Below, piece after piece: positions 1-64,000 of a stretch of DNA of 64,000 nucleotides. The position numbers and the translations under genes were made by a program. Positions within the stretch are counted from its first letter, which is position 1. Each line of letters begins with the position of its first letter. Source of the DNA: Mimachlamys varia (lineage: Eukaryota > Mollusca > Bivalvia > Pectinida > Pectinidae); the NCBI GenBank assembly GCA_947623455.1, contig OX392536.1, positions 11,775,282 through 11,839,281 on the forward strand. Direction: 5' to 3'. The notes below the pieces were generated by a model. The model saw only the letters and a list, made by a program, of their open reading frames with translations. It was not told where the DNA came from and made no database searches.

Positions 1-312
1 GGCTGAAAGGTTCCTTTGATGAAGCCCAACAACGTTTGCGAAAAGAAATTACCTTGACCTATATTCATGGCCACAGGGGTCAAATCTGTTAAAATATTTT
101 AACGACTTATGAAATGCTAAAAGGCCTAGAGACATATTTGGCTGGTAGCTTCCTTGGAAGAAGCTGAACAAAGGGTAATATATGTTTAATTTTAATATCT
201 TAATTAACAAATTTTTCTGAATGTCTGACAGTAATGGATATTAGGCGACTTTAGGGTTACAAGTAAGGGATTGATACCAGGTGAGTGATGCAGGCCCATT
301 GGGCCTCTTGTT
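1..312. other. Intronic sequence, no feature seen
   Basis: No open exon with matching splice sites was found. It is presumed to be the intron upstream of TRPM exon A. It is AT-rich without clear repeats. Confidence 0.5.
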
Positions 313-499
313 GTCGACCCTTATCTGTGTATACTGTTGATTGTTTTGCTGACTATCTTTGTCAGGTCGTTCCTGTCGACCCTTATCTGTGTGTACTGTT
401 GATTGTTTTGCTGACTATCTTTGTCAGGTCGTTCCTGTCAACCCTTATCTGTGTGTACTGTTGATTGTTTTGCTGACTATTTTTGTCAGGTCGTTCCTG
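313..499 (+). repeat. 62-bp tandem repeat, triplicated 3' splice acceptor of TRPM exon A
   Basis: Three 62-bp units begin at 313, 375 and 437. Each ends in a pyrimidine-rich stretch with TTTGTCAG followed by GTCGTTCCTGT, which is the acceptor and first codons of exon A. Candidate acceptor AGs end at 365, 427 and 489. Read in phase 0, only the last leaves the exon open; the first two run into TGA stops. The two upstream copies therefore look like decoy or ancestral duplicate acceptors. Confidence 0.85.
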
Positions 500-633
500 T
501 TGTCTTGTTTCCACTTCTGTTGTTGTTTCCACGAATATTGGAAGTACATCTACTGGGAGAGGAAACTCTTACGTTCTTCCACAGAGTGACAACGTTCTTC
601 ACAGCTCCTATTACTAAATTTGCTTATTTTTCG
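490..633 (+). CDS. TRPM: TRPM exon A: pre-S1 linker (alternative to exon B)
   Basis: 144 bp, phase 0 in and phase 0 out, acceptor TTTTTGTCAG and donor GTAAGT. It encodes 48 residues with the run LLLLFPRILEVHL followed by TTFFTAPITKFAYFS. The TAPITKF stretch is the TRPM segment that precedes S1. It joins in frame to the S1 exon at 4548 to give KFAYFS-LMYIAFL. Exon B, 63 bp downstream, is a homologous copy with the same phases, so the two are probably used one at a time. Splicing A to B would also keep frame but would duplicate the segment. Confidence 0.85.
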
Positions 634-3600
634 GTAAGTACCTTGAGAATTTCTCATTGAACCATATCATTCATGCTTTGTTTCCCATGTCCCTAGGTAC
701 TCGCGTGTATGATTGTACCATTTCTGCTGATGACCCGTTATTTGGAGATGAGTTTCATGGGAGAGCAAGGCTTCAACTTGATGCAGAAGATAACTACATT
801 TTATACTGCACCCATTACAAAGTTTGCAAACCATACGGTATGTCAGGGCACGCGTGCTTGTCTGTCCTCTGCAGGCTTTTCCTCAATGCACAGTTTGTTA
901 AATATACATTGTATACTGTATAAGTATATGGGGAAAGTCATCTGCATGTCATCTCTACTAATCAATCATACTTCCACTTCTAATCACCTTCGTTCACTAA
1001 AAGTTACAGTGTGTGATACTAAGTACTATCTACCAAGAGGACCCTTGTCAGTATTGACTTTTTTTTTTAATGAAAATCTAGAATAACATGTGTTTAGTCC
1101 ACCTCAATCAGGGCCCAGTTGTTCAAAAGGTGTTAAGCTTAATCAGTGATTAGTGCAAATGTTTAATTTTCCTGTAATTTTAAAACCAAACCATTGAATT
1201 TTCCTGTAACTTTAAAACCAAACCATTGAATTTTCCTGTAACTGTTATTTCCAGGTATCAAAAATCTGGTACAATCAATTCATATGCAAAATCGTGGGAT
1301 TGTACCTTGTATATTGACAGAATTATTAAAGGTTGAAAAATATTGTAAAATAGTGAATATTAAGCTGATCATCTTTTGAACAACTGGGGCCTGATATTGA
1401 AATCATCCTATGTTTATCTTGTTCTGTTTAATTCCTGTTACTGCTATTTCTCAGAAAGTACAGGAAGGGGATTTTCTCAGATTCCACACTTATCAATGAT
1501 TCTTTACTTTCATTTCTAATTTAGAGACTGATTGGAAAACTGGGTAACAATACTGATATCTTCGGTAGGTTAAAGTTTGATATTGCTATTTCTCAGAAAG
1601 AACTTGGTTCGAGGGACCTTTTTCAAATATGATATGTTGTGGATCCCTTTTAAGAGTTGTACAAGTTTGGCAACTTTTGAGACTGAACAAGATGGCTGCC
1701 AGGCAAACTATCTGAACAGATTTGATGGTGAAAAGATCAAACTAATGTAGAACTAAAGAAGCTGATGGACACTTATATCCCTTTCGGATCTCTTATTTTT
1801 TTTATTAGTTTTGAAAAAAAAGTACTTACAGATTTCAACTTTGATCATAGCTCCAACCATTTATCATCTTCATATCAGTTAACCTCTGAAACCTTTAATG
1901 AGGGAAACCTCCCTACGGTTACTACAGTAATATATACCGTTGCTAATTTGATCCACTTTCATGATTACCACGTTGTAATGAAATGATGTGTTTGACAGTA
2001 GATGTGGAGGTACACTGGATTAATAACTTAACTGCCAAATCTAACTTCTGTGACATCAAAACTTTCCTTAATGCACTTGCTTAAGCGGGTAATGCTATAC
2101 AGTTTTTAGGATCTTTATTGGAACATTTTGATGTTATCAATGTTGTGTAGTTAATGTATTTGATTGTTAAATGCTTGTTGTAGTTATTGTTCAGACATTG
2201 GGCAGGTGTATGTACAGAATGTTCAATTGATATGTTCAGTAATTTTCATCAGACTTACTTAAAATTCAGAGCTTGGATGAATTGGATTACAACTATATTC
2301 TCATAGTAACTAATGGAGTTATGGCCCTTGGAAAGAGCTGAAATAGTGTCCACACTACACTATGAATAATTTTAGTCGATTAATTCAAACTTAAAGGGAA
2401 GGTTTTAAAAACTGCTTTTTTCTGACTGTCAGTTGCAGAATTATGCCACTTTATTCAATTGTCTAAATGTTGTCTGTTCAATATCTCTGGTCATTTTCCA
2501 TGGATTAATTTCAAACTGTATAGGAAGGTTAATTGCCTTTAGAGCTCCAAACATTCAATAACCATTTTGGTCTGACTTACATTTACAGAGTAATATTAAT
2601 ATCCCCCTAACACAGTGTCAGGCTAATTGATTCACACCTGTTTGGTACTGGTGTGCCTATTCAAGTCGGGTCCCAAGCTAAAATGACCAGTTATGGCTTC
2701 TTGTGAGGTGGAGGGAGAAACCTTCATGAATGTGTGAGAAATTTAGCTCACGTGGCGTGAGGATTGTTTCAGCATGAGAGAGGTCATTTTTTTTATGAAT
2801 TTAAGTGAGTTTTTGTCTCACGCCGTGAGAGTTGGCAACCCTGCCTGAATGACATGAATGCTATACCATTGATCAAACTATGAATAAATATAAGCTTAAT
2901 GGTCAAGTAGGTGTGTTGAAGTATATCAACTTTATGAGGATTACTCGCAAATTAAACAGTCACTAATTACTTACAAGTGGAATTATTTTCTCCCTAACAC
3001 TCAATATTTTGCTATTAATCTTGCACAAACATGTAAATGTTGCATAACAATGTTAGATTCAGATATAATATGTATGTACCATTGAATTTAGTGTAACTAT
3101 TGTAGTGTAATTATTATTGTAATGTCTTTATGAATTCCATTTCATTTTAATTTTGATGTATTTACATTTTGAATATTTCTTTTATATCACTATTTAATTT
3201 CAATAATATTGATATAAAAAATGTATTGTATCAATTTCAGAAATGCTAATTTTTTTCAAAAATTTCAAATATCATCCCTGTTTCCTAGCTAATTTAAATA
3301 ATGAATTTTTGGCAAGAGATACCCGGGACCATATACTACTAGACACTCTGATTTGATGGAACTTAAAAATTATTCTACCTGATACAAAACGAAAGGTTTT
3401 AACAAAAGTTTGTTTTGTGATCATTTTAAGTGGTCAAATCTGTAGAAAGCTGACAAAATGGACTCTACTTTGTCCAGAAGTGTATCTGATTTACAGACCC
3501 TTGTATATATACTTAATAAAGGGCTAGAAGTATTACTCATCATTAATGGGAACACATGCTTATCACTGATAAAATCAATTTGATAAGTGTTAATTTTTAT

Positions 3601-6600
3601 TATACAGTGGAGACTTCTCATTTGTAGAGTCTAGTCAACAAAGGGTGGATATGATACTGATTATGGAATATTTACTGTAAAACTTGTAAATAAGGAGGTA
3701 AATAAGGAGGTAAATAAGGGGGTAAAAAAAAAGGTAAATAAGGGGGTAAAAACAGAGGTAAATAAGGGGGTAAATAAGGAGGTAAATAAGGGGGTAAATA
3801 AGGAGGTAAATAAGGGGGTAAATAAGGGGGTAAATAAGGAGGTAAATAAGGAGGTAAATAAGGGGGTAAATAAGGGGGTAAATAAGGGGGTAAATAAGGA
3901 GGTAAATAAGGGGGTAAATAAGGAGGTAAATAAGGGGGTAAATAAGGAGGTAAATAAGGGGGTAAATAAGGAGGTAAATAAGGGGGTAAATAAGGAGGTA
4001 AATAAGGAGGTAAATAAGGGGGTAAATAAGGAGGTAAATTAGGGGGTAAATAAGGGGTAAACAAGGAGGTAAATAAGGAGGTAAATAAGGAGGTAAATGA
4101 GGGGGTAAAAAAGGGGGTAAATAAGGGGGTAAATGAGAAGGTAAATAAGGAGGTAAATAAGGGGTAAATAAGGGGGTAGATTTATTGTTGAGTTTTGTCT
4201 GTCTCTGGTAAAATCTGGTTTACAAGTTAAGGGGTCAATATATCATTAAGCAGTAAATTGTGTTAGTAAAATAAAGTTACCAAGCTAGATTGGGCTAATT
4301 TCTGAGCATCCTGGCCTATCATTGTCTACACTTCATAGGCAAATTTCTACTAATTAGTGTGGAAATCGCTTAAATAAGATTGACGCTTATAATGTTAGAA
4401 CCTTTAGTTTACAGTATACAGTTATCTGTGGGTTGAGTGTTCATTAAGTGTATAATGCTATATATTGTATTTATAACCTGTAGCTGATCATGATGTACTT
4501 TGATATAAGTGTTAATTAATGCTATATATTATGTTTATGACCTGTAGCTGATGTACATAGCGTTCCTGGTGCTGTTTACCTACATGTTACTGGTGGACTT
4601 TGAGGCTCACAGAGTCACCCCCATAGAGTGTATATGTGTGGCCTGGATCTTCACTTTCATGGTGGATGACATTTACACGGTAAGTAGCATCACAAACTTC
4701 TGGTGTCTGATATATGTGTGTTATGTTAACGCATTCCGTCAAATGTGTAGATTGTCAAACACTAGTATATGTCAAGTGTGTAGATTGTCATAATTTATGT
4801 TTTTTGTCAAATGTGTAGATTGTCAAACATTATTTGTTCAATGTGCAGATTGTCAAACATTATTTGTTAAATGTGCAGATTGTCAAACATTATTTGTTAA
4901 ATGTGCAGATTGTCAAAGATTATTTGTTAAATGTGCAGATTGTCAAAGAGTATTTGTTAAATGTGCAGATTGTCAAACATTATTTGTTAAATGTGCAGAT
5001 TGTCAAAGAGTATTTGTTAAATGTGTACATTGTCAAACATTATTTGTTAAATGTGTAGATTGTCAAACATTATTTGTTAAATGTGCAGATTGTCAAAGAG
5101 TATTTGTCAAATGCACAGTTGCTTGAGTTTCTGTCAGTAAATAATAAATATATACGTGTGAAATGAGCCTCCCATTACAGTAATGTAATAATGGGCCGTG
5201 GCTCAATATATATAAACATTTTTTTTATATACTGACTGAAACTCAAGCAACTGTGGTCAAATGTGGAGATTGTCAAACATTATTTGTCAAATGTATCCAA
5301 AAAATAATTTCTGTATTTCAGTTGTTGACATTTCCGTCCCCGACATTTTATGGGAAGTTACGTGACTGGTACGGATTCCTGAAGTGGCTGGATCTGATCA
5401 ACTTCATCCTGGCTTTTATTGCCTTCGTTATCCACTTCAGAGAGGACTACTTTGAGGTGACCAAGATCATGTACTGTATCAACGGAGTCATCTTATACAT
5501 CAGGATCCTCAAAACCTACACAGCCAACGCTAACTTGGGGCCGAAGATGGTCATGATTCAACGCATGGTAAGAATCATTGACATACCCGTTAACCCTCCC
5601 TCATTACGACCAAAATTTTCCAATCTCTTGAAATCTCCCTCATCCAAGTCCAAACTCACACAAACTCAAAATCTACATCCTGTGGTCAATTGATCTCCTA
5701 GTTACTGCAGGGTATGTGTAATGACCATAACAGGTGTATCAAATGGATCAAATGAATACTTTGTAAAGTTATTTTGATACATAAAATGGGAAAGAAAAAA
5801 TTAATTGAGTTATACAGTTTCAGTCACATTTCACACACTTTCTGCCACATTGGAAATATGGAATGAGGGAGATCTCCCTCATTGGAGGTTTCAAAGGTTA
5901 ACACCGATGCATTGATCGCAGAGATTGCAGAAATTTACACGAAACAAAATTTCTTCTCATTCAGTTCCTCACATCAGTATTAATATTACTTCACAAAATC
6001 TAATTAACCAGTCCCAGATGATAATTTAAACTCATTTAATGACAGTTTATATGATTTGCCTTTATTTAGATGGCTGAACTGAAAATGTTTGTGATGGTGC
6101 TGCTTGTCTTCCTGCTGGCTTATGGCATTTCCAGCCAGGCATTACTCTACAAACAGCGGCGTCCTAGCTGGATTATCCTCAAGGACATGTTCTATTTCCC
6201 CTACTGGCAGCTGTTCGGCGAAATCTTCCTGGATGACCTCAACAGTAAGTTGACCTGTCATTTTCTACATAACTGAGATCATTGTATATAATCTTTGTAT
6301 AGATGTACCCAGTCTGTGTTTATGTATAGGTACCCAGCCTGTGGTATATATGTATAGATACCCAGCCTGTGGTTATGTGTAAGTATATATTGTTCTCTAT
6401 ATTTTCCAGCTGACACAGACTGTTTGGAAGCTGCTCGTCAGATCAATGACACGGCACTGGCTGCCAAAGAAGAGTTGTACTGTCTACAAAACCACTGGCT
6501 TGTGTACTTCCTCCTGGCAGCCTACCTCATGGTGGGGAATGTCCTCCTTCTCAACCTCCTCATAGCCATATTCAGGTAACTACCTCATCAGCCTCCTCAT

Positions 6601-9600
6601 AGCCATATTCAGGTAACTACCTCATCCTCCTCATAGCCATATTCAGGTAACTACCTCCTCAACCTCCTCATAGCCATATTCAGGTAACTACCACCTCAAC
6701 CTCCTCATAGTCATATTCAGGTAACTACCTCCTCAACCTCCTCATAGTCATATTCAGGTTACTACCTCCTCAACCTCCTCATAGCCATATTCAGGTAACT
6801 ACCTCCTCAACGTGCTCATAGCCATATTCAGGAAACAACCTCATCAACCTCCATATAGCCATATTCAGGTAACTACCTCATCAGCCTCCTCATAGCCATA
6901 ATCAGGTAACTACCTCCTCAGCCTCCTCATAGCCATATTCAGGTAACGACCTCCTCAGCCTCCTCATAGCCATATTCAGGTAACTACTTCCTCAACCTCC
7001 TCATAGCCATATTCAGGTAACTACCTCATCAACCTCCTCATAGCCATATTCAGGTAATTACCTCATCAACCTCCTCATAGCCATTATCAGGTAACTACCT
7101 CATCAACCTCCTCATACCTATATTCAGGTAACTACCTCCTCAACTTCCTCATAGTCATATTCAGGTAACTACCTCATCAACCTCCTCATAGCCATATTCA
7201 GGTAACTACCTCATCAACCTCCTCATAGCCATATTCAGGTAACTACCTCATCAACCTCCTAATAGCCATATTCAGGTAACTTCCTCCTCAACCTCCTCAT
7301 AGTCATATTCAGGTTACTACCTCCTCAACCTCCTCATAGCTATATTCAGGTAACTACCTCCTCAACGTGCTCATAGCCATGTTCAGGAAACAACCTCATC
7401 AACCTCCGTATAGCCATATTCAGGTAACTACCTCATCAGCCTCCTCATAGCCATAATCAGGTAACTACCTCCTCAGCCTCCTCATAGCCATATTCAGGTA
7501 ACGACCTCCTCAGCCTCCTCATAGCCATATTCAGGTAACTACTTCCTCAACCTCCTCATAGCCATATTCAGGTAACTACCTCATCAACCTCCTCATAGCC
7601 ATATTCAGGTAATTACCTCATCAACCTCCTCATAGCCATATTCAGGTAATTACCTCATCAACCTCCTCATAGCCATATTCAGGTAACTACTTCCTCAACC
7701 TCCTCATAGCCATATTCAGGTAACTACCTCATCAACCTCCTCATAGCCATATTCAGGTAACTACCTCATCAACCTCCTAATACCTATATTCAGGTAAGTA
7801 TCTCCTCAACTTCCTCATAGTCATATTCAGGTAACTACCTCATCAACCTCCTCATAGCCATATTCAGGTAACTACCTCATCAACCTCCTCATAGCCATAT
7901 TCAGGTAACTACCTCATCAACCTCCTAATAGCCATATTCAGGTAACTTCCTCCTCAACCTCCTCATAGCCATATTCAGGTAACGACCTCCTCAGCCTCCT
8001 CATAGCCATATTCAGGTAACTACTTCCTCAACCTCCTCATAGCCATATTCAGGTAACTACCTCATCAACCTCCTCATAGCCATATTCAGGTAATTACCTC
8101 ATCAACCTCCTCATAGCCATTATCAGGTAACTACCTCATCAACCTCCTCATACCTATATTCAGGTAACTACCTCCTCAACTTCCTCATAGTCATATTCAG
8201 GTAACTACCTCATCAACCTCCTCATAGCCATATTCAGGTAACTACCTCATCAACCTCCTCATAGCCATATTCAGGTAACTACCTCATCAACCTCCTAATA
8301 GCCATATTCAGGTAACTTCCTCCTCAACCTCCTCATAGTCATATTCAGGTTACTACCTCCTCAACCTCCTCATAGCTATATTCAGGTAACTACCTCCTCA
8401 ACGTGCTCATAGCCATGTTCAGGAAACAACCTCATCAACCTCCGTATAGCCATATTCAGGTAACTACCTCATCAGCCTCCTCATAGCCATAATCAGGTAA
8501 CTACCTCCTCAGCCTCCTCATAGCCATATTCAGGTAACGACCTCCTCAGCCTCCTCATAGCCATATTCAGGTAACTACTTCCTCAACCTCCTCATAGCCA
8601 TATTCAGGTAACTACCTCATCAACCTCCTCATAGCCATATTCAGGTAATTACCTCATCAACCTCCTCATAGCCATATTCAGGTAATTACCTCATCAACCT
8701 CCTCATAGCCATATTCAGGTAACTACTTCCTCAACCTCCTCATAGCCATATTCAGGTAACTACCTCATCAACCTCCTCATAGCCATATTCAGGTAACTAA
8801 CTCATCAACCTCCTAATATCTATATTCAGGTAACTACCTCCTCAACTTCCTCATAGTCATATTCAGGTAACTACCTCATCAACCTCCTCATAGCCATATT
8901 CAGGTAACTACCTCATCAACCTCCTCATAGCCATATTCAGGTAACTACCTCATCAACCTCCTAATAGCCATATTCAGGTAACTTCCTCCTCAACCTCCTC
9001 ATAGTCATATTCAGGTTACTACCTCCTCAACCTCCTCATAGCTATATTCAGGTAACTACCTCCTCAACGTGCTCATAGCCATGTTCAGGAAACAACCTCA
9101 TCAACCTCCGTATAGCCATATTCAGGTAACTACCTCATCAGCCTCCTCATAGCCATAATCAGGTAACTACCTCCTCAGCCTCCTCATAGCCTATTCAGGT
9201 AACGACCTCCTCAGCCTCCTCATAGCCATATTCAGGTAACTACTTCCTCAACCTCCTCATAGCCATATTCAGGTAACTACCTCCTCAACCTCCTCATAGC
9301 CATATTCAGGTAATTACCTCATCAACCTCCTCATAGCCATATTCAGGTAACTACCTCATCAACCTCCTCATAGCCATATTCAGGTAATTACCTCATCAAC
9401 CTCCTCATAGCCATTATCAGGTAACTACCTCATCAACCTCCTAATACCTATATTCAGGTAACTACCTCCTCAACTTCCTCATAGTCATATTCAGGTAACT
9501 ACCTCATCAACCTCCTCATAGCCATATTCAGGTAACTACCTCATCAACCTCCTCATAGCCATAATCAGGTAACTACCTCCTCAGCCTCCTCATAGCCTAT

Positions 9601-12600
9601 TCAGGTAACGACCTCCTCAGCCTCCTCATAGCCATATTCAGGTAACTACTTCCTCAACCTCCTCATAGCCATATTCAGGTAACTACCTCCTCAACCTCCT
9701 CATAGCCATATTCAGGTAATTACCTCATCAACCTCCTCATAGCCATATTCAGGTAACTACCTCATCAACCTCCTCATACCTATATTCAGGTAACTACCTC
9801 CTCAACTTCCTCATAGTCATATTCAGGTAACTACCTCATCAACCTCCTCATAGCCATATTCAGGTAACTACCTCATCAACCTCATCATAGCCATATTCAG
9901 GTAACTACCTCATCAACCTCCTAATAGCCATATTCAGGTAACTACCTCATCTACCTCCTCATAGCCATATTCATGTAACTACCTCATCAACCTCCTAATA
10001 GCCATATTCAGGTAACTACCTCAACAAAATGAAGGTCAGAGACCCACAATTTTTAAACAATTTCTCTGAAACTGTGCAGGTTTAAAAAATTTTAAGATGA
10101 TAAAGAATGCAAAAAAGAAAAAAATTGTATATTCTAATTAAGTTAGGTTTTTCACTTTGGCATGAGACAGGTGTATATTGTTATGTCCTGGCAGGAGACA
10201 GGTATATATTGTTATGTCCTGGCAGGAGACAGGTATATATTGTTATGTCCTGACATGAGACAGTTGTATACTGTTATGTCCTGACATGAGACAGGTGTAT
10301 ACTGTTATCTCCTGGCAGGAGACAGGTGTATACTGTTATGTCCTGACATGAGACAGGTATATATTGTTATCTCCTGGCAGGAGACAGGTGTATATTGTTA
10401 TGTCCTGACATGAGACAGGTGAATATTGTTATGTCCTGGCAGGAGACAGGTGTATATTGTTATGTCCTGGCAGGAGACAGGTGATTATTGTTATGTCCTG
10501 GCAGGAGACAGGTGTATATTGTTATGTCCTGACATGAGACAGGTGTATATTGTTATGTCCTGGCAGGAGACAGGTATATATTGTTATGTCCTGAGATGAG
10601 ACAGTTGTATATTGTTATCTCCTGGCAGGAGACAGGTGTATAGTGTTAAGTTATGGCAGGAGACAGGTATATACTGCTATCTCCTGGCAGGAGACAGGTG
10701 TATATTGTTATGTCCTGACATGAGACGCCCGGTGTATATTGTTATGTCTTGGAGTACTTATTATCATTGCCATTTCTTAAAGGAATTGTGAAATCATAAA
10801 CAGTATTTAAGAGCAAATGAGAGGCAAGAAAAGAAAGGAAGGAAAAAGAAAAATGAAAATCAGACATTTATCAGCGCCAAGAATATATTTCAATATCTTG
10901 TTTATCTCTGTTGAGTTTGGATGAAGTGAGAGAGTACCGTAATGGAATCTGTTTTTTTTTTTTTCAGTCACGTGTTTGACACAATTGAAGAAAACTCCAT
11001 TGAGATCTGGAAGTATCAGATGTACTTCCTCACCATGGAGTTTGATAACAAGACAGCGTTTGTGCCGCCCTTCAGCATCTTCGCCCACTTCTACCTTACA
11101 TTTAAGTGGATATTCCGTAAAACTTGTTGTCACAAGGGCACAAAAGGTAGAGCACCTCAACAACACACATATATACATGGCTTGTATTCATCTTGGGTTG
11201 TTTTTTAAATTTGTTGATTTTTTTTTTTTTTTTTTCAGAAACATAATGTATGTGGAAAAGTTGTAACTGTATTGTCCACTACAAATATTTTCTGTCATGT
11301 TAAGATATAAATGATGGATTCTTTGCAATGTGAAAAAAAAATATTGTATCGCAATGACTCAGTTTCCATTGTTTCATGCCTTTTATTTTAAGTATTTTGG
11401 TGGATTTGAAACAAAAATTGTTGGAAGTTTTTATCTAAACTTAGGAACAACAAATTTGATTGGAATCTGTTTTTTCTGAATATCTTAATACCATGGTTTT
11501 TAACTCTGCTCATTTCAATATTGTTTCAGGTGTGCAATTCTCAAAGCGTCACTTAGAATACCTTCAGTTGTTTGAGAAAGAGGAGATGACAAACTTGTTA
11601 CGTAGGAAGAAGGCCAGAGATAAGGAGACTATTGAAACCAAGATTAACCTGCTCCAGAAAAGGTGAGTCATCAACTAAGGACGATAACTTGTATTAAAAT
11701 AAAAATCACTTAATCTTCTTTGAGACAAGCATTTCCTTTGGCTTAAAAAAATTATGACATCGTTGTTTATAATGTTGCTTTTGATTAGCTGATGCAGCAG
11801 CGTAATGATTTGTGTGAGAAAAAACCCCATCAGGTGAATTTTGGCAGGGTGTAGATTAAATTATAAGGATGAACTTGAATGTATATTTAATGTTATGGAG
11901 TTATAACACAGAAAACCGGTGTACTCCGAGTACACTCAGTTTTTTTGTGCTATACGTCCATATCATAAAAGATCAATTCAAGTTAATCCTTGAATGCAAT
12001 TTTATCAAAATTTTGACAAAATAAAAAATGCTATATAACTAATGTTTTTATGGAATGGTTCATTTGAAGTGAAAACAAATAACAGTCTTTTCAGCGAGAG
12101 TCAGTTTATTTCAAATTTGTTTATTGGGCAGTTGGGGTTTTGAAGTTCATGACTTTGATTTAGTTTATCTTCATCAGTTGTCATTGCCATTTGACAGGAG
12201 TAAACTTCAGAATACTTGGTTAGAGACAAACTCATGAGATGATAGTGAAGGTGTACCATATAGAATTGCGAGATTTAAAGTAATTTTGAGCTAAACTTCG
12301 GCCTTTTTATTTTATACAGAAATGAAGAGTTATTCAAAGTGCTTGAGGAAGACTTTTTCCCTGAGCTTGGAGCAGAGGATCACCATCGGCATTTCCTAGA
12401 AACCACATACTACAACCCACAAGAAGCTGCAAAAGCACCCGAGTTAGTAAAGGAGGAAACCAAAGAAACGATCATTCTTCCCGAGGTAAGCTGCGGAAAC
12501 GGCACAAAGTTAATCGTTCCTCAAGTTTACATTGCACAACAATTGGTCAAAAAATATATTTATTAAACACCGCTTTATGAGTTTCTGTGAACAAGACTTG

Positions 12601-13733
12601 CTTTGTCAGCTGTTTTTTATGTTCATTTAAATTTCACTTCTCACTGCAAAATTCATATTTTAGTTGTGGCAAACAGGAATGTTAATGTTCACTCTTTTAC
12701 CCCTGAAGACACATGTGAACTCTTCCATTTCAGAGGTTGGAATAGTCCATTATGAAATGTCAGGGATGAATGTGTAAATTGCCTTGTTTATGAAATCTTG
12801 TATACAGTTTAGGGAAACCAATCATGGGACAGGAGAGTTACCTGGTATTAAGTTAAGGCTGTAGGACATATTAGTTTGAGGGAATGAATCTTCTAAATGA
12901 CGATAAATGGTTCAAGGAGGGATCTTTTACTTGGTCACATTTTCCATGACATACATTATACTTATTTCCATCTGTGACAGATACATGAACATGGCATAAT
13001 ATTCCTGAAAACCTACAAAGCTGGTTTCCTTGCAAATAAAGCTGGACTTTTTCTGAAAGATAACATTATGATTTAGTCGAAGCATGTGTTGATATATTTC
13101 CTGGCAGCTTTTTGCCTCTTGTTTGAATTTCAATTTGCTGATGGAAAGACTTTTATTTCTATGATGTCTTTACAGCAAGAGGAAGATGAAGTAGCTAAAA
13201 AGAAAATGAAAAAGAAATTGAAAAAGGAAAAGAAGGAGAAGAAAAAGAAGGAGAAAGAAGAACGGATGAAGCTCAATAACTTTGACAATCCTGTCTTTAA
13301 GCATGATACGACCCCAGACAAATCATTACAGTTTTCTCCACATCTAGATGTTGTTACCCAACCTCGGGTCCAACCTGTGTCTCCTGTACGGAAAACCTCA
13401 CTAGAAGCCCCACAGCGCCCTGGACTGTACCGGCGCATATCCAGTAGGTCATACAGGGGAGAGGCACAGGACTCTGATTCCTCGGATGAAGATTTAATGC
13501 GTACAAGTGGCCATTTTGGAATGCGAAAAGCCTTGAACGTTCCATCAGGTCATATGTCATCGAGAAGAAGCTTATCTAGAGACTCGACTGATTCGGAGGA
13601 GAACAATATCAGGGCAGTGTCCCCTAGAATGTTCACACGGGTGGCAAGGGAAAGCAGCACCGAGGACGAGAGGAGGAAACACAAAAAGAAGAGGAAGAAG
13701 CTGATGAAGAAAATGATCTCGGATACTGAGTGA
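490..13733 (+). CDS. TRPM: TRPM-family cation channel, 3' two thirds of gene (gene-level entry)
   Basis: Nine coding segments read in compatible phase: 490-633 (A) or 697-837 (B), 4548-4679, 5322-5567, 6070-6244, 6410-6575, 10968-11146, 11530-11662, 12320-12485 and 13176-13733. With exon A they total 1,899 nt, 632 residues plus TGA. Seen in sequence: S1 with FTYMLLVDF, an S3-S4 segment with YIRILKTYT and LGPKMVMIQRM, S5 with AYGISSQALLY, pore motif YWQLFGEIFLDDL, S6 ending NLLIAIF, and the TRP helix IWKYQMYFLTMEF. These are hallmarks of TRPM channels, which are tetrameric Ca/Mg-permeable or monovalent membrane channels. The FGE filter resembles the TRPM1/3/6/7 type more than the FGQ type; this is inference from memory of the family. 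The tail shows no alpha-kinase or NUDT9-like domain. The N-terminal MHR exons lie upstream of the window. Exact subfamily unresolved. Confidence 0.93.
697..837 (+). CDS. TRPM: TRPM exon B: pre-S1 linker, homologous alternative exon
   Basis: 141 bp, phase 0 on both sides, acceptor TTTCCCATGTCCCTAG and donor GTATGT. The 47 residues align with exon A from the first Val: LLM-TRYLEMSFMGEQ against LLLLFPRILEVHLLGEE, then TTFYTAPITKFANHT against TTFFTAPITKFAYFS. The conserved core is TAPITKFA. Divergence is mostly upstream of the core and in the last three residues next to S1. The reading frame is fully open and both splice sites are good, which argues against a dead copy. Use in transcripts is not shown by the sequence. 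Confidence 0.8.
1109..1393. mobile_element. MITE-like element with ~20-bp terminal inverted repeats
   Basis: The left end CAGGGCCCAGTTGTTCAAAAG matches the reverse complement of the right end CTTTTGAACAACTGGGGCCTG with about one difference. The total is 285 bp with no coding capacity. Internally, two copies of a ~33-bp stretch (around 1165-1245) lie in tandem. A clear target-site duplication was not found. A degenerate relative lies near 18890-19045. It sits in the TRPM intron after exon B. Confidence 0.7.
1394..3685. other. TRPM intron, largely featureless
   Basis: AT-rich intron sequence with no conserved exon visible. Around 2730-2845 there are two inverted stretches of the GTGAG/CTCAC type, GTGGCGTGAGG and CTCACGCCGTGAGAG. 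These may be the remnant of a small inverted-repeat element; I could not define its ends. Confidence 0.4.
3686..4178 (+). repeat. 12-bp minisatellite (GTAAATAAGGRG)
   Basis: About 40 tandem units of GTAAATAAGGGG or GTAAATAAGGAG, mixed in irregular order, with a few decayed units such as AAAAAAAAGG. Every A-variant unit creates AGGTAAAT, which resembles a 5' splice site. The opposite strand reads as an open Pro-Pro-Tyr-Leu repeat only because 12 is divisible by three; this is not taken as a gene. Confidence 0.95.
4451..4549 (+). repeat. 64-bp tandem duplication of the S1-exon acceptor
   Basis: An imperfect two-copy repeat: AATGCTATATATTGTATTTA then CCTGTAGCTGAT (AG ending at 4483) is followed by AATGCTATATATTATGTTTA then CCTGTAGCTGAT (AG ending at 4547). 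The second AG is the one that gives the open S1 exon. Entering at the first AG in phase 0 meets TAA within about 12 codons. Confidence 0.75.
4548..4679 (+). CDS. TRPM: TRPM exon: S1 transmembrane segment
   Basis: 132 bp, 44 residues, phase 0 to phase 0, donor GTAAGT. S1 reads MYIAFLVLFTYMLLVDF. A linker and the start of S2 follow: TPIECICVAWIFTFMVDDIYT. This matches the family pattern of an FTYxLLVDF end of S1 followed by WxFT...EEI. The frame stays open past the donor for a further 38 codons into the intron, but those codons have no channel-like content. Confidence 0.9.
4738..5294 (+). repeat. 30-bp minisatellite in TRPM intron, interrupted by a MITE
   Basis: About 13 units of 30 bp carrying ATTATTTGTTAAATGTGCAG followed by ATTGTCAAAC or -AAGAG. 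The array is interrupted at 5114-5255 and resumes at 5256-5294. Because 30 is divisible by three, one frame is open as a ten-residue VKCADCQTLF repeat. It lies wholly between two verified channel exons and is not judged a gene. Confidence 0.9.
5114..5255. mobile_element. 142-bp MITE-like element inserted inside the 30-bp array
   Basis: The terminal inverted repeats are about 26 bp. Left CACAGTTGCTTGAGTTTC pairs with right GAAACTCAAGCAACTGTG, with a further TGTCAGTA/TACTGACT match at one difference. The inside is a hairpin-rich stretch with CCCATTAC and GTAATAATGGG. The flanks are array units (GTCAAATG on both sides), which fixes the insertion site but hides any target duplication. Confidence 0.8.
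5322..5567 (+). CDS. TRPM: TRPM exon: S2 end, S3 and S4
   Basis: 246 bp, 82 residues, phase 0 to phase 0, acceptor CTGTATTTCAG, donor GTAAGA. It encodes FYGKLRDWYGFLKWLDLINF (S2-S3 linker and S3), a hydrophobic S3 LAFIAFVIHF, then INGVILYIRILKTYT (S4) and LGPKMVMIQRM, the S4-S5 linker start. WLDL and YIRxL...LGPK are diagnostic of TRPM channels. Confidence 0.95.
5568..6069. other. TRPM intron, nothing recognised
   Basis: 502 bp of AT-rich intron. No repeat array, element ends or extra exon was seen. Confidence 0.6.
6070..6244 (+). CDS. TRPM: TRPM exon: S5 and pore helix/selectivity filter
   Basis: 175 bp, phase 0 in and phase 1 out, acceptor TTTATTTAG, donor GTAAGT. S5 reads MFVMVLLVFLLAYGISSQAL. 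It is followed by PSWIILKDMFYFPYWQLFGE and IFLDDLN, the pore helix and filter. Gly-Glu within FGE would sit at the selectivity filter. By family knowledge an acidic residue there supports divalent permeation; that is inference for this channel. Confidence 0.95.
6306..6386 (+). repeat. Short tandem repeat, 3 units of 25-28 bp
   Basis: Three units start with TACCCAGYCTGTG and end near TATGTATAGG, TATGTATAGA or TATGTGTAAG, just upstream of the S6 exon acceptor at 6409. Each carries a TAG or AAG at its 3' end but no strong polypyrimidine tract. Confidence 0.7.
6410..6575 (+). CDS. TRPM: TRPM exon: pore loop and S6
   Basis: 166 bp, phase 1 in and phase 2 out, acceptor ATTTTCCAG, donor GTAACT. It encodes the post-filter loop with two Cys (TDCLEAAR and ELYCLQNHW), which could form the pore-loop disulfide known in TRPMs, then S6 as YFLLAAYLMVGNVLLLNLLI and AIF. 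The last 25 nt of this exon are the seed of the 37-bp array that follows immediately. Confidence 0.95.
6576..10021 (+). repeat. 37-bp minisatellite made of the S6 exon/intron junction (~93 copies)
   Basis: A 3.4-kb array begins exactly at the exon donor. Each 37-bp unit holds 25 nt identical or nearly identical to the end of the S6 exon (coding NLLIAIF; core ATAGCCATATTCAG) plus 12 nt of intron starting GTAACTACCTC. Most units keep an intact AG-GTAACT donor; variants have GTTACT, GTAATT, GTAACG or GAAACA. A marker unit containing CAACGTGCTC recurs at 6809, 7364, 8400 and 9066. The spacings are 555, 1036 and 666 bp, which equal 15, 28 and 18 units, so blocks have been duplicated within the array. 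Confidence 0.97.
10160..10752 (+). repeat. 31-bp minisatellite in TRPM intron
   Basis: About 19 units of 31 bp, each with GTCCTGGCAGGAGACAGG or GTCCTGACATGAGACAGG followed by TGTATATTGTTAT. The two variants (GGCAGG and ACATGA) alternate irregularly. Each unit of the first type contains CAG-GAGACAG-GTGTAT, that is, an AG and a GT seven bases apart. Confidence 0.93.
10968..11146 (+). CDS. TRPM: TRPM exon: post-S6 and TRP helix
   Basis: 179 bp, phase 2 in and phase 1 out, acceptor with a long T tract then CAG, donor GTAGAG. It encodes HVFDTIEENSIEIWKYQMYF and LTMEF, the TRP helix, then VPPFSIFAHFYLTFKWIF, matching the family's xLPPPLxxxxHxxxxxK region. It closes with the basic Cys-containing KTCCHKGTK. 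The splice joins the S6 codon AG to T, giving AIFS-HVFD. Confidence 0.93.
11530..11662 (+). CDS. TRPM: TRPM exon: C-terminal helical region
   Basis: 133 bp, phase 1 in and phase 2 out, acceptor TTGTTTCAG, donor GTGAGT. It encodes a charged helical stretch with FSKRHLEYLQLFEKEEMTNL and ETIETKINLLQKR. The heptad-like hydrophobic spacing agrees with the C-terminal connecting helix and tetramerising coiled coil of TRPM channels. Confidence 0.85.
11663..12319. other. TRPM intron, nothing recognised
   Basis: 657 bp of AT-rich intron. No array, inverted repeat or open exon with splice sites was seen. Confidence 0.55.
12320..12485 (+). CDS. TRPM: TRPM exon: acidic C-terminal segment
   Basis: 166 bp, phase 2 in and phase 0 out, acceptor TTTTATACAG, donor GTAAGC. 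It encodes EELFKVLEEDFFPELGAED followed by YYNPQEAAKAPELVKEETKE. It is glutamate-rich and probably continues the helix. I recognise no named domain. Confidence 0.8.
13176..13733 (+). CDS. TRPM: TRPM last exon: Lys-rich and Ser-rich tail with stop
   Basis: 558 bp including TGA, entered in phase 0 after GTCTTTACAG. It starts with an almost pure Lys/Glu run (KKKMKKKLKKEKKEKKKKEK). A Ser/Pro/Arg-rich tail follows with acidic-serine clusters such as AQDSDSSDEDL and RDSTDSEENN (casein-kinase-2-like sites), and it ends KKLMKKMISDTE. No alpha-kinase (TRPM6/7) or NUDT9 homology (TRPM2) motif is visible, so the channel is probably non-enzymatic. The open frame extends 90 nt upstream of the acceptor, but that part is intronic in character. 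Confidence 0.88.
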   Translation, partial: QEEDEVAKKKMKKKLKKEKKEKKKKEKEERMKLNNFDNPVFKHDTTPDKSLQFSPHLDVVTQPRVQPVSPVRKTSLEAPQRPGLYRRISSRSYRGEAQDSDSSDEDLMRTSGHFGMRKALNVPSGHMSSRRSLSRDSTDSEENNIRAVSPRMFTRVARESSTEDERRKHKKKRKKLMKKMISDTE

Positions 13734-27176: not shown

Positions 27177-28099
27177 TCAAACCATTCGCAGCCATACTGG
27201 TTCCTCACTGTTGTGTCTTTGATGTATATTCCTACCATGATGTTCTCTACTCATTATTCTGTTCGGAAGCATGTCTGCTTCATGATCGTCACTAGATGAT
27301 TTACACTGTTGTGCATCATTTGCTGATGATTTTACAGAGGATCTCGCCGAAGACTTTCTAGAAAGGTTTTTTGAAACGTTTCCTGAAATGCTTGAAGATG
27401 GTGTGGATAAATAGCTATGACATCCAGGTGAATCATTTGAACTTTGGTCTGCTCCCGTTCTACTTGAAGAACTTCGTGACCTGGTTGAAGACGTCGATCC
27501 GATGCTTAACGATGAGCGCGCATTTTGTGTTTTGGTAATTTCATTAACTGTGGGAACAGAAAGCATGACCATATCATTCCTTTGTAAAGATATGTCTTCT
27601 TTGATTTTTTGAGAAACTGGCGACGAAGTTGCGCTCACAACAACAGGACAACTAGAATCTGAAGTTAATTTCACTTTAGGTATAGACGGATCAACATGAC
27701 GCACGTGCCGCACGTGACTTTCTTTCTTGTTCCGACAGCAGCAGCTCCTTACATTGTGGTACATGTTGTTGAGGTCTGCCTTCAGCGTTCCGAGGTCCAT
27801 GATACAGATAGATATTAGGACTATAGCAAGCATCCCTACGCCAAATGACCCAATCCCAGTCGCCGATACTCTGTCGTCACTTGCACTGATAAACTTGCGT
27901 TTGTGGAGAGAGGTGTTTTTCTTATTTACCGTGAGTTCCTTTCTCAATAGTTCAACTTTCTCTTCAATTGTGAGTTCCGGTCTGTTTTCAATGGTACAGG
28001 GACACACACATATTGGTTGGGGTGTCGTTGTCGATGTCTGGGGCGTTTCTGTAGTGGCCATGACTTCAGTAGTTACGATGTCAGTAGTACTTGTTACGT
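27177..28099 (-). CDS. Lectin receptor exon 6: stalk, membrane span and cytoplasmic tail
   Basis: 923 nt including the stop, after acceptor CTTTTTGAACAG. It opens with the stalk VTSTTDIVTTEVMATTETPQ and an ICVCPC cluster. The membrane span GIGSFGVGMLAIVLISICIM follows, then a juxtamembrane RSCCCRNKK that could be palmitoylated. The remainder is Ser-rich (RSRSSSSRTGADQSSNDSPG, RKSSARSSVKSSAND) and ends EEPVWLRMV. An ATG at 28061 lies inside this exon but is not needed as a start, because the frame is open to the acceptor and joins exon 5. Confidence 0.88.
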
Positions 28100-46097: not shown

Positions 46098-47730
46098 TCA
46101 CCAGACTAACATTACAAAACTTGTCCTTCAAGAATACAGTAACTCTCACCAGACTAACATTACAAAACTTGTCCTACAGTAACTCTCACCAGACTAACAT
46201 TACAAAACTTGTCCTTCAAGAATACAGTAACTCTCACCAGACTAACAATACAAAACTTGTCCTACAAGAATACAGTAACTCTCACCAGACTGACATTACA
46301 AAACTTGTCCTACAAGAATACAGTAACTCTCACCAGACTAACAATACAAAACTTGTCCTACAAGAATACAGTTACTCTCATCAGACTAACATTACAAAAC
46401 TTGTCCTACAGTAGTTCTCACCAGACTAACATTACAAAACTTGTTCTACAGTAACTCTCACCAGACTAACATTACAAAACTTGTCCTACAAGAATACAGT
46501 AACTCTCACCAGACTAACATTACAAAACTTGTCCTACAAGAATACAGTAACTCTCACCAGACTAACATTACAAAACTTGTCCTACAAGAATACCGTAACT
46601 CTCACCAGACTAACATTACAAAACTTGTCCTACAGTAACTCTCACCAGACTAACATTACAAAACTTGTCCTACAAGAATACAGTAACTCTCACCAGACTA
46701 ACAATACAAAACTTGTCCTACAAGAATACAGTAACTCTCACCAGACTAACATTACAAAACTTGTCCTACAGTAACTCTCACCAGACTAACATTACAAAAC
46801 TTGTCCTACAAGAATACAGTAACTCTCACCAGACTAACATTACAAAACTTGTCCTACAGTAACTCTCACCAGACTAACATTACAAAACTTGTCCTACAAG
46901 AATACAGTAACTCTCACCAGACTAACATTACAAAACTTGTCCTACAGTTACTCTCACCAGACTAACATTACAAAACTTGTCCTTCAAGAATACAGTTACT
47001 CTCACCAGACTAACATTACAAAACTTGTCCTACAAGAATACAGTAACTCTCACCAGACTAACATTACAAAACTTGTCCTACAAGAATACAGTAACTCTCA
47101 CCAGACTAACATTACAAAACTTGTCCTACAAGAATACAGTAACTCTCACCAGACTAACATTACAAAACTTGTCCTACAGTAACTCTCACCAGACTAACAT
47201 TACAAAACTTGTCCTACAGTAACTCTCACCAGACTAACATTACAAAACTTGTCCTTCAAGAATACAGTAACTCTCACCAGACTGACATTACAAAACTTGT
47301 CCTACAGTAACTCTCACCAGACTAACATTACAAAACTTGTCCTACAGTTACTCTCACCAGACTAACATTACAAAACTTGTCCTACAAGAATACAGTAACT
47401 CTCACCAGACTAACATTACAAAACTTGTCCTACAAGAATACAGTAACTCTCACCAGACTAACATTACAAAACTTGTCCTACAGTAACTCTCACCAGACTG
47501 ACATTACAAAACTTGTCCTACAGTAACTCTCACCAGACTAACATTACAAAACTTGTCCTACAGTTACTCTCACCAGACTAACATTACAAAACTTGTCCTA
47601 CAAGAATACAGTAACTCTCACCAGACTAACATTACAAAACTTGTCCTACAAGAATACAGTAACTCTCACCAGACTAACATTACAAAACTTGTCCTACAGT
47701 AACTCTCACCAGACTAACATTACAAAACTT

Positions 47731-50700
47731 GTCCAACAAGAATACAGTAACTCTCACCAGACTAACAATACAAAACTTGTCCTTCAAGAATACAGTAACT
47801 CTCACCAGACTAACAATACAAAACTTGTCCTACAAGAATACAGTAACTCTCACCAGACTAACAATACAAAACTTGTCCTACAGTAACTCTCACCAGACTA
47901 CAGTAACTCTCACCAGACTAACAATACAAAACTTGTCCTACAAGAATACAGTAACTCTCACCAGACTAACATTACAAAACTTGTCCTACAAGAATACAGT
48001 AACTCTCACCAGACTAACATTACAAAACTTGTCCTACAAGAATACAGTAACTCTCACCAGACTAACATTACAAAACTTGTCCTACAGTAACTCTCACCAG
48101 ACTAACATTACAAAACTTGTCCTACAGTAACTCTCACCAGACTAACAATACAAAACGTGTCCTACAGTAACTCTCACCAGACTAACATTACAAAACTTGT
48201 CCTACAAGAATACAGTAACTCTCACCAGACTAACATTACAAAACTTGTCCTACAAGAATACAGTAACTCTCACCAGACTAACATTACAAAACTTGTCCTA
48301 CAGTAACTCTCACCAGACTAACATTACAAAACTTGTCCTACAGTAACTCTCACCAGACTAACAATACAAAACTTGTCCTACAAGAATACAGTAACTCTCA
48401 CCAGACTAACATTACAAAACTTGTCCTACAGTAACTCTCACCAGACTAACAATACAAAACTTGTCCTACAAGAATACAGTAACTCTCACCAGACTAACAT
48501 TACAAAACTTGTCCTTCAAGAATACAGTTACTCTCACCAGACTAACATTACAAAACTTGTCCTACAAGAATACAGTAACTCTCACCAGACTAACATTACA
48601 AAACTTGTCCTACAAGAATACAGTAACTCTCACCAGACTAACAATACAAAACTTGTCCTACAAGAATACAGTAACTCTCACCAGACTAACATTACAAAAC
48701 TTGTCCTACAGTAACTCTCACCAGACTAACATTACAAAACTTGTCCTTCAAGAATACAGTAACTCTCACCAGACTGACATTACAAAACTTGTCCTACAGT
48801 AACTCTCACCAGACTAACAATACAAAACTTGTCCTTCAAGAATACAGTAACTCTCACCAGACTAACAATACAAAACTTGTCCTACAAGAATACAGTAACT
48901 CTCACCAGACTAACATTACAAAACTTGTCCTACAGTAACTCTCACCAGACTAACAATACAAAACTTGTCCAACAAGAATACAGTAACTCTCACCAGACTA
49001 ACAATACAAAACTTGTCCTTCAAGAATACAGTAACTCTCACCAGACTAACAATACAAAACTTGTCCTACAAGAATACAGTAACTCTCACCAGACTAACAA
49101 TACAAAACTTGTCCTACAGTAACTCTCACCAGACTACAGTAACTCTCACCAGACTAACAATACAAAACTTGTCCTACAAGAATACAGTAACTCTCACCAG
49201 ACTAACAGTACAAAACTTGTCCTACAAGAATACAGTAACTCTCACCAGACTAACATTACAAAACTTGTCCTACAAGAATACAGTAACTCTCACCAGACTA
49301 ACATTACAAAACTTGTCCTACAGTAACTCTCACCAGACTAACATTACAAAACGTGTCCTACAGTAACTCTCACCAGACTAACATTACAAAACTTGTTCTA
49401 CAGTAGTTCTCACCAGACTAACAGTACAAAACTTGTCCTACAGTAATTCTCACCAGACTAACAACACAAAACGTGTCCTACAGTAGTTCTCACCAGACTA
49501 ACAGTACAAAACTTGTCCTTCAAGAATACAGTAACTCTCACCAGACTAACAATACAAAACTTGTCCTACAGTAGTTCTCACCAGACTAACAGTACAAAAC
49601 TTGTCCTACAGTAATTCTCACCAGACTAACAACACAAAACGTGTCCTACAGTAGTTCTCACCAGACTAACAGTACAAAACTTGTCCTTCAAGAATACAGT
49701 AACTCTCACCAGACTAACAGTACAAAACTTGTCCTACAGTAACTCTCACCAGACTAACAACACAAAACGTGTCCTACAGTAGTTCTCACCAGACTAACAG
49801 TACAAAACTTGTCCTACAAGAATACAGTAACTCTCACCAGACTAACATTACAAAACTTGTCCTACAAGAATACAGTAACTCTCACCAGACTAACATTACA
49901 AAACTTGTCCTTCAAGAATACAGTAACTCTCACCAGACTAACATTACAAAACTTGTCCTTCAAGAATACAGTAACTCTCACCAGACTAACATTACAAAAC
50001 TTGTCCTTCAAGAATACAGTAACTCTCACCAGACTAACATTACAAAACTTGTCCTACAGTAACTCTCACCAGACTAACAACACAAAACGTGTCCTACAGT
50101 AGTTCTCACCAGACTAACAGTACAAAACTTGTCCTACAAGAATACAGTAACTCTCACCAGACTAACATTACAAAACTTGTCCTACAGTAACTCTCACCAG
50201 ACTAACATTACAAAACTTGTCCTTCAAGAATACAGTTACTCTCACCAGACTAACATTACAAAACTTGTCCTACAAGAATACAGTAACTCTCACCAGACTA
50301 ACAATACAAAACTTGTCCTACAAGAATACAGTAACTCTCACCAGACTAACATTACAAAACTTGTCCTACAGTAACTCTCACCAGACTAACAATACAAAAC
50401 TTGTCCTTCAAGAATACAGTAACTCTCACCAGACTAACAATACAAAACTTGTCCTACAAGAATACAGTAACTCTCACCAGACTAACATTACAAAACTTGT
50501 CCTACAAGAATACAGTAACTCTCACCAGACTAACAATACAAAACTTGTCCTACAAGAATACAGTAACTCTCACCAGACTAACATTACAAAACTTGTCCTA
50601 CAGTAACTCTCACCAGACTAACATTACAAAACTTGTCCTTCAAGAATACAGTAACTCTCACCAGACTGACATTACAAAACTTGTCCTACAGTAACTCTCA

Positions 50701-63800: not shown

Positions 63801-64000
63801 CAGTAACTCTCACCAGACTAACATTACAAAACTTGTCCTTCAAGAATACAGTAACTCTCACCAGACTAACATTACAAAACTTGTCCTACAGTAACTCTCA
63901 CCAGACTAACATTACAAAACTTGTCCTACATTAACTCTCACCAGACTAACATTACAAAACTTGTCCTTCAAGAATACAGTAACTCTCACCAGACTGACAT

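What the first reader, a model, noticed from the sequence alone, without database searches (positions are those of the whole stretch)
6410..10021. A splice junction amplified into a ~93-copy minisatellite inside the TRPM gene
The 37-bp unit contains the last 25 nt of the S6 exon (coding NLLIAIF) and the first 12 nt of the intron including the GT donor. It repeats for 3.4 kb directly after the real donor. Most copies keep an intact AG-GTAACT, so the pre-mRNA would carry dozens of near-identical 5' splice sites side by side. The true donor is only the first of them. Donors further in would add repeat-encoded sequence to the S6 end, because 37 is not a multiple of three and shifts the frame with each unit. 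Use of the first donor, or three units on, is needed to keep frame. This could act as a splicing buffer, a regulated brake on channel expression, or a purely selfish array. Copy number should vary between individuals.
Basis: partly seen in the sequence, partly recalled or inferred. Interest (0 to 1): 0.9.

Follow-up and report, generated by a model that had tools for sequence, protein, structure and literature searches.

The report
Splice-donor minisatellite in scallop TRPM gene
In a scallop ion-channel gene the signal that marks the end of an exon has been copied about 94 times in a row, and similar copied splice signals turn up elsewhere in the same genome, so this looks like an extreme case of a known but rarely described kind of repeat and a natural test of how cells pick the right splice site.

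Summary
The array is real: 94 head-to-tail units of about 37 bp at 6551-10027, each the last 25 nt of a TRPM S6 exon plus the first 12 nt of its intron. 89 of 94 units keep AG|GT, 69 an exact AGGTAACT. The genome is the scallop Mimachlamys varia. A genome-wide search found the unit only here, so the exon is its source.

Donor positions vary as much as the rest of the unit, so selection on the extra donors is not visible.

Junction repeats are known as 'mirages' in amphioxus, and human IFI6 has a donor minisatellite. New here: copy number, two more donor arrays and one acceptor array in this gene, and a genome-wide excess of arrays carrying CAGGTAAG (14,241 triple hits against 940 for the reversed word; 3.6-fold after correcting for word abundance). 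Four of eight such arrays inspected start at a recognisable exon's donor. Splicing is untested.

The parts
6410..6575 (+). TRPM exon 'F': pore to end of S6, ...GNVLLLNLLIAIF + AG (phase 2)
   Evidence: frame and AG/GT borders; homology to TRPM3 and scallop TRPMs
6551..10027 (+). 94-unit, 37-bp splice-donor minisatellite; units 1-25 exon-derived, 26-37 intron-derived
   Evidence: TRF, unit table, donor table
6576..6577 (+). first (true) GT donor, CAG|GTAACT; the only one of 90 GT donors that leaves the frame open
6576..10967 (+). intron of 4392 nt, 92% of it inside tandem arrays
10158..10752 (+). second array in the same intron, 31 bp x 19.1, unit with ACAG|GTGTAT; not exon-linked
10968..11146 (+). 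next exon 'G' (S)HVFDTIEENSIEIWKYQMYFLTMEFDNKT... (TRP-helix side), acceptor T12-CAG
312..500 (+). 62 bp x 3.0 array covering the acceptor TTTTTGTCAG and the first 11 nt of exon A: a splice-acceptor array in the same gene
490..633 (+). TRPM exon 'A' (48 codons), alternative to exon B
697..837 (+). TRPM exon 'B' (47 codons), 44% identical to exon A; the form seen in the four scallop proteins read
4548..4679 (+). TRPM exon 'C'
5322..5567 (+). TRPM exon 'D'
6070..6244 (+). TRPM exon 'E'
   Evidence: the automatic junction search gave a worse pair here
11530..11662 (+). TRPM exon 'H'
12320..12485 (+). TRPM exon 'I'
13176..13733 (+). last TRPM coding exon 'J', ends ...ISDTE-stop
3686..4178 (+). 12 bp x 41 array (GTAAATAAGGAG) deep in another intron of the gene, GAG|GTAAAT donor-like words but no exon beside it

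Best explanation
It is a splice-junction minisatellite of the 'mirage' kind. A short tandem duplication straddling the donor of the S6 exon arose once in an ancestor of this scallop and grew, by slippage and by unequal exchange of multi-unit blocks, into 94 copies. All but the first copy lie inside the intron. The channel is made only when the first donor, the one bounded by the real exon, is joined to the exon at 10968; the other 89 GT donors are decoys, and any of them, if used, leaves NLLIAIFR-stop right after S6, with three exon junctions still downstream, so the product should be a truncated subunit or an mRNA removed by nonsense-mediated decay. The array is tolerated because the first donor, next to a 166-nt exon, normally wins. 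Shown: anatomy, single-locus origin, block duplications, frame consequences. Inferred: first-donor use, decay of mis-spliced mRNA, near-neutrality. The same genome holds more arrays of this kind, so a general tendency of this genome to turn donor junctions into minisatellites is the likely background.
For: Array and donors. Source is the exon: the exonic part encodes the TRPM S6 end NLLIAIF, present in the four pectinid TRPMs read and close to TRPM3, and 88 of 88 genome-wide hits of a 29-mer with up to 3 mismatches lie in this array. Growth by blocks: 21 consecutive units identical at a lag of 28 units, 1036 bp. Six-base CTCAAC on both sides of the array, in the exon and right after the last unit (sequence printed), fits a slippage origin. 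Only donor 1 open: 1 of 90. No extra conservation of donor positions (7 variants in 8 positions against 24 in 29, from the table). Same kind elsewhere in this gene: donor arrays at -14878 (34 bp, 20 intact AGG|GTACC) and -2441 (42 bp x 4), acceptor array at 312-500. Precedent that mirages do not disturb splicing: passages of PMC3087553 and PMC3902484. HiFi-based assembly at 44-fold coverage.
Against: No RNA evidence at all. The true donor GTAACT is of middling strength by U1 pairing (-8.0 kcal/mol; the 8 other donors scored run from -5.5 to -10.9) and one internal unit, number 34, carries a perfect CAG|GTAAGT (-14.0), so first-donor use is not guaranteed by strength; from recall, duplicated donors in test genes often favour the copy nearer the acceptor. 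The HiFi assembly is one individual, one haplotype. Neutrality is argued from a small number of variants in related units.
Confidence: 0.75

Rival explanations
1. A regulated brake: use of internal donors is tuned, and the resulting NLLIAIFR-stop mRNAs lower channel output (unproductive splicing).
For: 89 of 89 downstream GT donors give the same stop, so the brake would work with any of them; three exon junctions follow the stop. The Elysia marginata TRPM entry P0003 (617 aa) ends exactly at ...NLLIAIFR, which is what reading past this donor gives, though it may be just a truncated gene model.
Against: Donor positions of the units are not better conserved than other positions (table). Four pectinid TRPM entries are full length across the junction. 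Arrays of the same kind occur at unrelated genes.
Confidence: 0.08
2. A recursive or re-splicing ladder: every unit ends CTCCTCATAGCCATATTCAG|GTAACT, a weak acceptor joined to a donor, so the intron could be removed in steps, and an mRNA made with a wrong donor k could be re-spliced from donor 1 to the AG that then sits at the junction, which restores the exact reading frame.
For: Follows from the unit: any donor i to AG j splice removes whole units. The TTCAG|G acceptors score 2.2 on average (0.15 to 4.6), as high as or higher than all but 3.8% of 1586 background AGs, and within the range of the gene's ten acceptors (-0.6 to 8.3, median 4.0) (weights recalled, approximate). Ratchet points are juxtaposed acceptor and donor sites (PMC8605326 passages).
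Against: Pyrimidine tract is short and a competing ATAG lies 10 nt upstream. In Drosophila recursive splicing needs an RS-exon (PMC8605326 abstract passage), which was not looked for here. No intermediates seen.
Confidence: 0.07
3. A chance by-product: this genome is rich in minisatellites, and one of them happened to start on a splice junction; nothing about donors matters.
For: Tandem arrays (period 10 or more, at least 2.5 copies) make up 13.9% of ten sampled 5-kb stretches, 15 arrays in 50 kb, of which 1 carries AGGTAA on either strand. Of 20 ion-channel exon loci taken from the Pfam list, 1 has an array across an exon edge, and none across a donor.
Against: In the TRPM gene 4 of 15 arrays cross a splice junction against 0.97 expected for randomly placed seed units, P = 0.011 (tested after the fact). 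Genome-wide, CAGGTAAG in tandem triples is 15 times commoner than the reversed word and 3.6 times after correcting for single-word abundance; 4 of 8 such arrays inspected start at an exon's donor.
Confidence: 0.25
4. Assembly artefact.
For: One assembly only; no reads seen.
Against: The assembly is HiFi, 44-fold, contig N50 19.4 Mb; the units differ (32 distinct types), so the array is not a collapsed or duplicated read path; the gene continues in frame on both sides.
Confidence: 0.02

Closest known systems
Amphioxus 'mirages' (Adh3, globins BflGb6 and BflGb9, PGBD5, troponin C)
   Same: Minisatellite-like tandem duplication spanning an exon-intron boundary, many units keeping AG/GT; both 5' and 3' borders can be affected; higher-order copying. 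From passages of PMC3087553 and PMC3902484; the original Adh paper is not held.
   Different: There 2-6 units (BflGb6) with 150-160-bp units, Adh3 units 10-72 bp; here 94 units. There regular splicing and length polymorphism were observed; here neither could be tested. Animal group differs: a bivalve.
Human IFI6 (6-16, G1P3) minisatellite with multiple splice donors (Turri et al. 1995)
   Same: Tandem repeat that offers several splice donors at one exon end. Seen only as a reference title and one passage of PMC4526556: two downstream units are used as donors, giving three mRNA species.
   Different: There downstream units are used productively; here every downstream donor gives an immediate stop, so productive use is excluded. 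Copy number here is far higher than the two to three donors reported used.
Intron gain by tandem duplication of AG|GT (Rogers model; potato RdRp case PMC4974935, seen as search listing only)
   Same: Tandem copies of a segment with AG|GT, which can serve as new donors and acceptors.
   Different: Here an old intron is lengthened; no new intron is shown.
Drosophila ratchet points (recursive splicing)
   Same: Acceptor and donor juxtaposed as AG|GT inside a long intron.
   Different: Here they are by-products of copying the donor; no evidence of use; no RS-exon sought.

Membership tests
Mirage (tandem-duplicated exon/intron boundary) | Tandem repeat whose unit spans an exon-intron boundary | tested here: met
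   25 nt exon + 12 nt intron per unit
Mirage (tandem-duplicated exon/intron boundary) | Source boundary is the gene's own, not a dispersed repeat | tested here: met
   88 of 88 genome-wide hits in the array; counts may be lower bounds by the tool's own note
Mirage (tandem-duplicated exon/intron boundary) | Length polymorphism or somatic instability | not testable with these tools
   one haplotype only; block duplications inside the array are indirect
Mirage (tandem-duplicated exon/intron boundary) | Normal mRNA splicing in spite of the repeats | not testable with these tools
   no RNA data; four relatives' predicted proteins are correctly joined but whether they carry the array is unknown
Multi-donor minisatellite of the IFI6 type | Many units keep a donor word | tested here: met
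   90 of 94 GT, 69 of 94 AGGTAACT
Multi-donor minisatellite of the IFI6 type | Downstream donors give productive isoforms | tested here: not met
   89 of 89 downstream GT donors give NLLIAIFR-stop in silico
Recursive-splicing ratchet point | Acceptor with pyrimidine tract fused to a donor | tested here: inconclusive
   moderate acceptor scores with recalled weights
Recursive-splicing ratchet point | Stepwise removal shown by intermediates; RS-exon | not testable with these tools
   no RNA data; RS-exon not sought
TRPM channel gene | TRPM transmembrane region homology | tested here: met
   PDB TRPM3 2.3e-58; Mizuhopecten TRPM 91% identity over the searched 491 residues; Ion_trans 30.5 bits, cut-off 25

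The most novel reading that the evidence does not exclude
In this scallop splice donors are a genome-wide seed for minisatellites: a donor-linked mutational or selective process has turned donor junctions at many genes into tandem donor arrays (order of a thousand by extrapolation from six arrays in the first 4.2 Mb of one scaffold), so that many pre-mRNAs carry dozens of near-identical donors, and the arrays persist because the AG|GT unit lets mis-spliced products be re-spliced or discarded.
Probability: 0.4. Interest if true: 0.88.

Novelty: new variant of a known kind. Interest (0 to 1): 0.68.

Why it matters
A single gene with 90 GT donors in a row, only the first of which makes protein, is a natural experiment on how a 5' splice site is chosen among near-identical rivals. 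If donor arrays are common in this genome, it also gives a tractable system for two open questions: why splice junctions become repeats, and whether AG|GT duplication is a live route to new introns. Public HiFi reads, an alternate haplotype and muscle RNA-seq of the same animal exist (accessions), so the main predictions can be checked without new sampling.

Tried and rejected
Dispersed repeat or transposon as source: rejected. Known RNA family in the window: 0 Rfam matches at gathering score. Selection on donor letters: looked for, not seen (table). Comparison with TRPM DNA of other scallops: not possible, no such genomes are held; only their proteins were read. Paralogue search with P0015 in the genome: not answered, dropped. 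Control word CAAGTGAG turned out to be donor-like itself (GTGAG), so it is a conservative control; its reversal gave the highest control count, 1815. Acceptor word TTTTACAG: 5185 triples against 1... 2003 for its reversal, 2.6-fold, not corrected for single-word abundance. Donor of the exon before A/B: the automatic pair (-1102) is wrong; by eye it is CAACGG|GTGAGT at about -1156 (one search used -1158), with no array near. One search also used two edges (-9638, -9026) that one search had left unresolved, and counts the 34-bp array with TRF's 100-bp period, which raises the null. Four of the eight C1 arrays (L042, L044, L045, L047) show no recognisable exon at their start. L078's array stops short of its exon.
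Full report
What is there. TRF reports 94.1 copies of a 37-bp unit at 6551-10027. Cutting it unit by unit gives 94 units, the first inside the exon. Each unit is the last 25 nt of the exon that ends transmembrane segment S6 (coding NLLIAIF plus AG) and the first 12 nt of the intron, CAG|GTAACTACCTCA. 90 of 94 units keep GT, 89 keep AG|GT and 69 an exact AGGTAACT; one unit (number 34) has the perfect CAG|GTAAGT. Three units were cut as 34, 36 and 36 nt. Within the window 91 matches to a 26-mer with up to 3 mismatches were found, against 0 in 100 shuffles.

The gene. Exons A (490-633), B (697-837), C, D, E, F (6410-6575), G (10968-11146), H, I and J (to the stop at 13733) read in one frame and match TRPM channels: TRPM3 in the PDB at 2.3e-58, the TRPM of the scallop Mizuhopecten at 91% identity over the searched part. 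Ten thousand bases upstream at a time, three stretches (L009-L011) carry the rest of the gene to its start near -20336 (script coordinates: window base 1 is 1, the base before it 0).

The organism. The window lies in a genome of 975,302,275 bases in 71 contigs. Its C1 is 65,822,114 bases and its C9 50,749,371, exactly the longest scaffold and the scaffold N50 published for Mimachlamys varia xbMimVari1.1 (passages of PMC11252643; there 975,381,475 bases in 82 scaffolds, so some small scaffolds are missing here). That assembly is from HiFi reads at 44-fold coverage.

Origin. A 29-mer of the unit with up to 3 mismatches hits 88 places in the genome, all inside this array; the exact 37-mer hits 20, again all inside. 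The tool warns that counts can be lower bounds. The exonic half is conserved TRPM coding sequence, so the exon is the source. There are 32 unit types; the longest identical run is 21 units at a lag of 28 units, 1036 bp, so blocks of many units have been copied. CTCAAC stands both in the exon (6550-6555) and directly at the array's far end (10020-10025) (sequence), as expected if slippage at short homology began it; that step is inference.

What the donors would do. The intron is phase 2 and the donor reads ..TTC AG|G TAA. Splicing from donor 1 gives NLLIAIF-S-HVFD. For the other 89 GT donors the spliced frame in silico ends NLLIAIFR-stop, because the first GTAA is itself an in-frame stop. So the frame argument in the finding fails. 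The exon junctions G/H, H/I and I/J lie downstream of that stop, so decay of such mRNA is expected from general knowledge of nonsense-mediated decay, not shown. U1 pairing: -8.0 kcal/mol for the real donor, -5.5 to -10.9 for the eight others scored in this gene, -14.0 for unit 34; 0.6% of 2045 background GTs pair as well as the real donor.

Is it kept by selection? Counting distinct variant letters in the table (89 units of 94; five left out for length or register; 28 distinct units), the eight donor positions have 7 variants and the other 29 positions 24, i.e. 0.88 and 0.83 per position. There is no sign that donor letters are protected.

More of the same in this gene. Two further donor arrays exist: at the exon ending -14878 (..AYQHYTG), 34 bp, 20 intact AGG|GTACC words, only the first leaving the frame open (1 of 20), and at the exon ending -2441 (..SMAASAFDR), 42 bp x 4, where all four donors keep the frame through the next exon and would add 14 residues per unit. 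At 312-500 a 62-bp unit repeated three times covers an acceptor and 11 nt of exon A. In all, 4 of 15 arrays in the gene cross a splice junction, against 0.97 expected when one unit of each is placed at random, P = 0.011; for donors 3 against 0.49, P = 0.010. This test was made after seeing the arrays, and some exon edges in it are approximate (see Tried and rejected).

Genome-wide. The pattern CAGGTAAG three times at gaps of 10-40 bases is found 6964 + 7277 times, its letters reversed 439 + 501 times. A permuted word, CAAGTGAG, gives 428 + 488 and its reversal 1036 + 779. Single CAGGTAAG: 36,409 + 34,436; reversed: 8354 + 8693. So triples per single word are 20.1% against 5.5%, a 3.6-fold excess beyond the abundance that real donors give the word. 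The acceptor-like word TTTTACAG gives 2561 + 2624 triples against 998 + 1005, 2.6-fold, uncorrected for singles. The listed places (first 100 only) hold six distinct CAGGTAAG arrays within C1:0.67-4.17 Mb, each with its own unit, against two CAAGTGAG arrays up to 16.5 Mb and four TTTTACAG arrays up to 7.8 Mb. I inspected those six CAGGTAAG arrays and two more seen. Four of the eight start at the donor of a recognisable exon: EGF (L043, 35 bp x 88.6, Pfam EGF 23.9 bits, cut-off 21.5), DSL (L046, 45 bp x 8.1, 28.6 bits, cut-off 24.2), axonemal dynein heavy chain (L058, 66 bp x 8.7, PDB match 9.7e-35) and CUB (L060/L059, 64 bp x 35.5, 27.0 bits, cut-off 21.4). The other four show no recognisable exon.

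Results that pull the other way. Of 20 ion-channel exon loci (the first 20 hits of at most 420 bp in the list of 122), one has an array across an exon edge: L079, an acceptor array of 60 bp x 6; a 24-bp x 12 array sharing AGTACAGGTGAGACA with its donor starts about 50 nt after that donor. No locus of the 20 has an array across a donor. In a 50-kb sample, 1 of 15 arrays carries AGGTAA on either strand. So junction arrays are not at most exons, and the genome-wide claim rests on word counts and eight arrays.

Known kinds. Tandem repeats spanning exon-intron borders are called mirages in amphioxus; they may be unstable and are reported not to disturb splicing (passages of PMC3087553, PMC3902484). 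Human IFI6 has a minisatellite that supplies several donors (title in reference lists, one passage of PMC4526556). Eight full-text searches of the held library listed no report of such arrays in scallops or other bivalves; the library lacks most subscription papers.

Verdict. Most likely it is a near-neutral mirage whose first donor does the work, in a genome where donor junctions seem prone to become minisatellites.

Noticed in passing
490-633 and 697-837: Two tandem exons, 44% identical (20 of 45), both phase 0 and separated by 63 nt, encode the same TRPM segment (..TFFTAPITKFAYFS / ..TFYTAPITKFANHT): probably mutually exclusive exons.
   Followed up: partly
L009 (upstream of the window, script coordinates -2474 to -2307): 42 bp x 4 donor array in frame and free of stops: use of donors 2-4 would add 14, 28 or 42 residues (VCIS.SMAASAFDR) to the channel.
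   Followed up: partly
L046 (C1:3401300-3411299, minus strand): 45 bp x 8.1 array at the donor of a DSL exon; the unit reads in frame without stops as far as printed, so downstream donors could add cysteine-rich repeats.
   Followed up: no
L043 (C1:1159800-1169799): 35 bp x 88.6 donor array filling the intron between two EGF exons: a near twin in size of the TRPM array, with the stronger donor CAG|GTAAG.
   Followed up: partly
L079 (C1:523987-524763): An ion-channel exon with an acceptor array (60 bp x 6) before it and a donor-like array (24 bp x 12) about 50 nt after it.
   Followed up: partly
46098-64000: A satellite of about 17.9 kb running off the window, made of 40- and 48-bp units in 88- and 136-bp higher-order repeats.
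   Followed up: no
3686-4178: 12 bp x 41 array of donor-like words (GAG|GTAAAT, GGG|GTAAAT) deep inside an intron with no exon beside it; 42 GT, mean U1 pairing -6.6 kcal/mol.
   Followed up: partly
P0003 (Elysia marginata protein, 617 aa): This deposited TRPM ends exactly at NLLIAIFR, as reading past the same donor would give; it may be a truncated gene model or an unspliced form.
   Followed up: no
27177-28061, minus strand: Open reading frame of 294 codons with no Pfam match at E 0.01.
   Followed up: no
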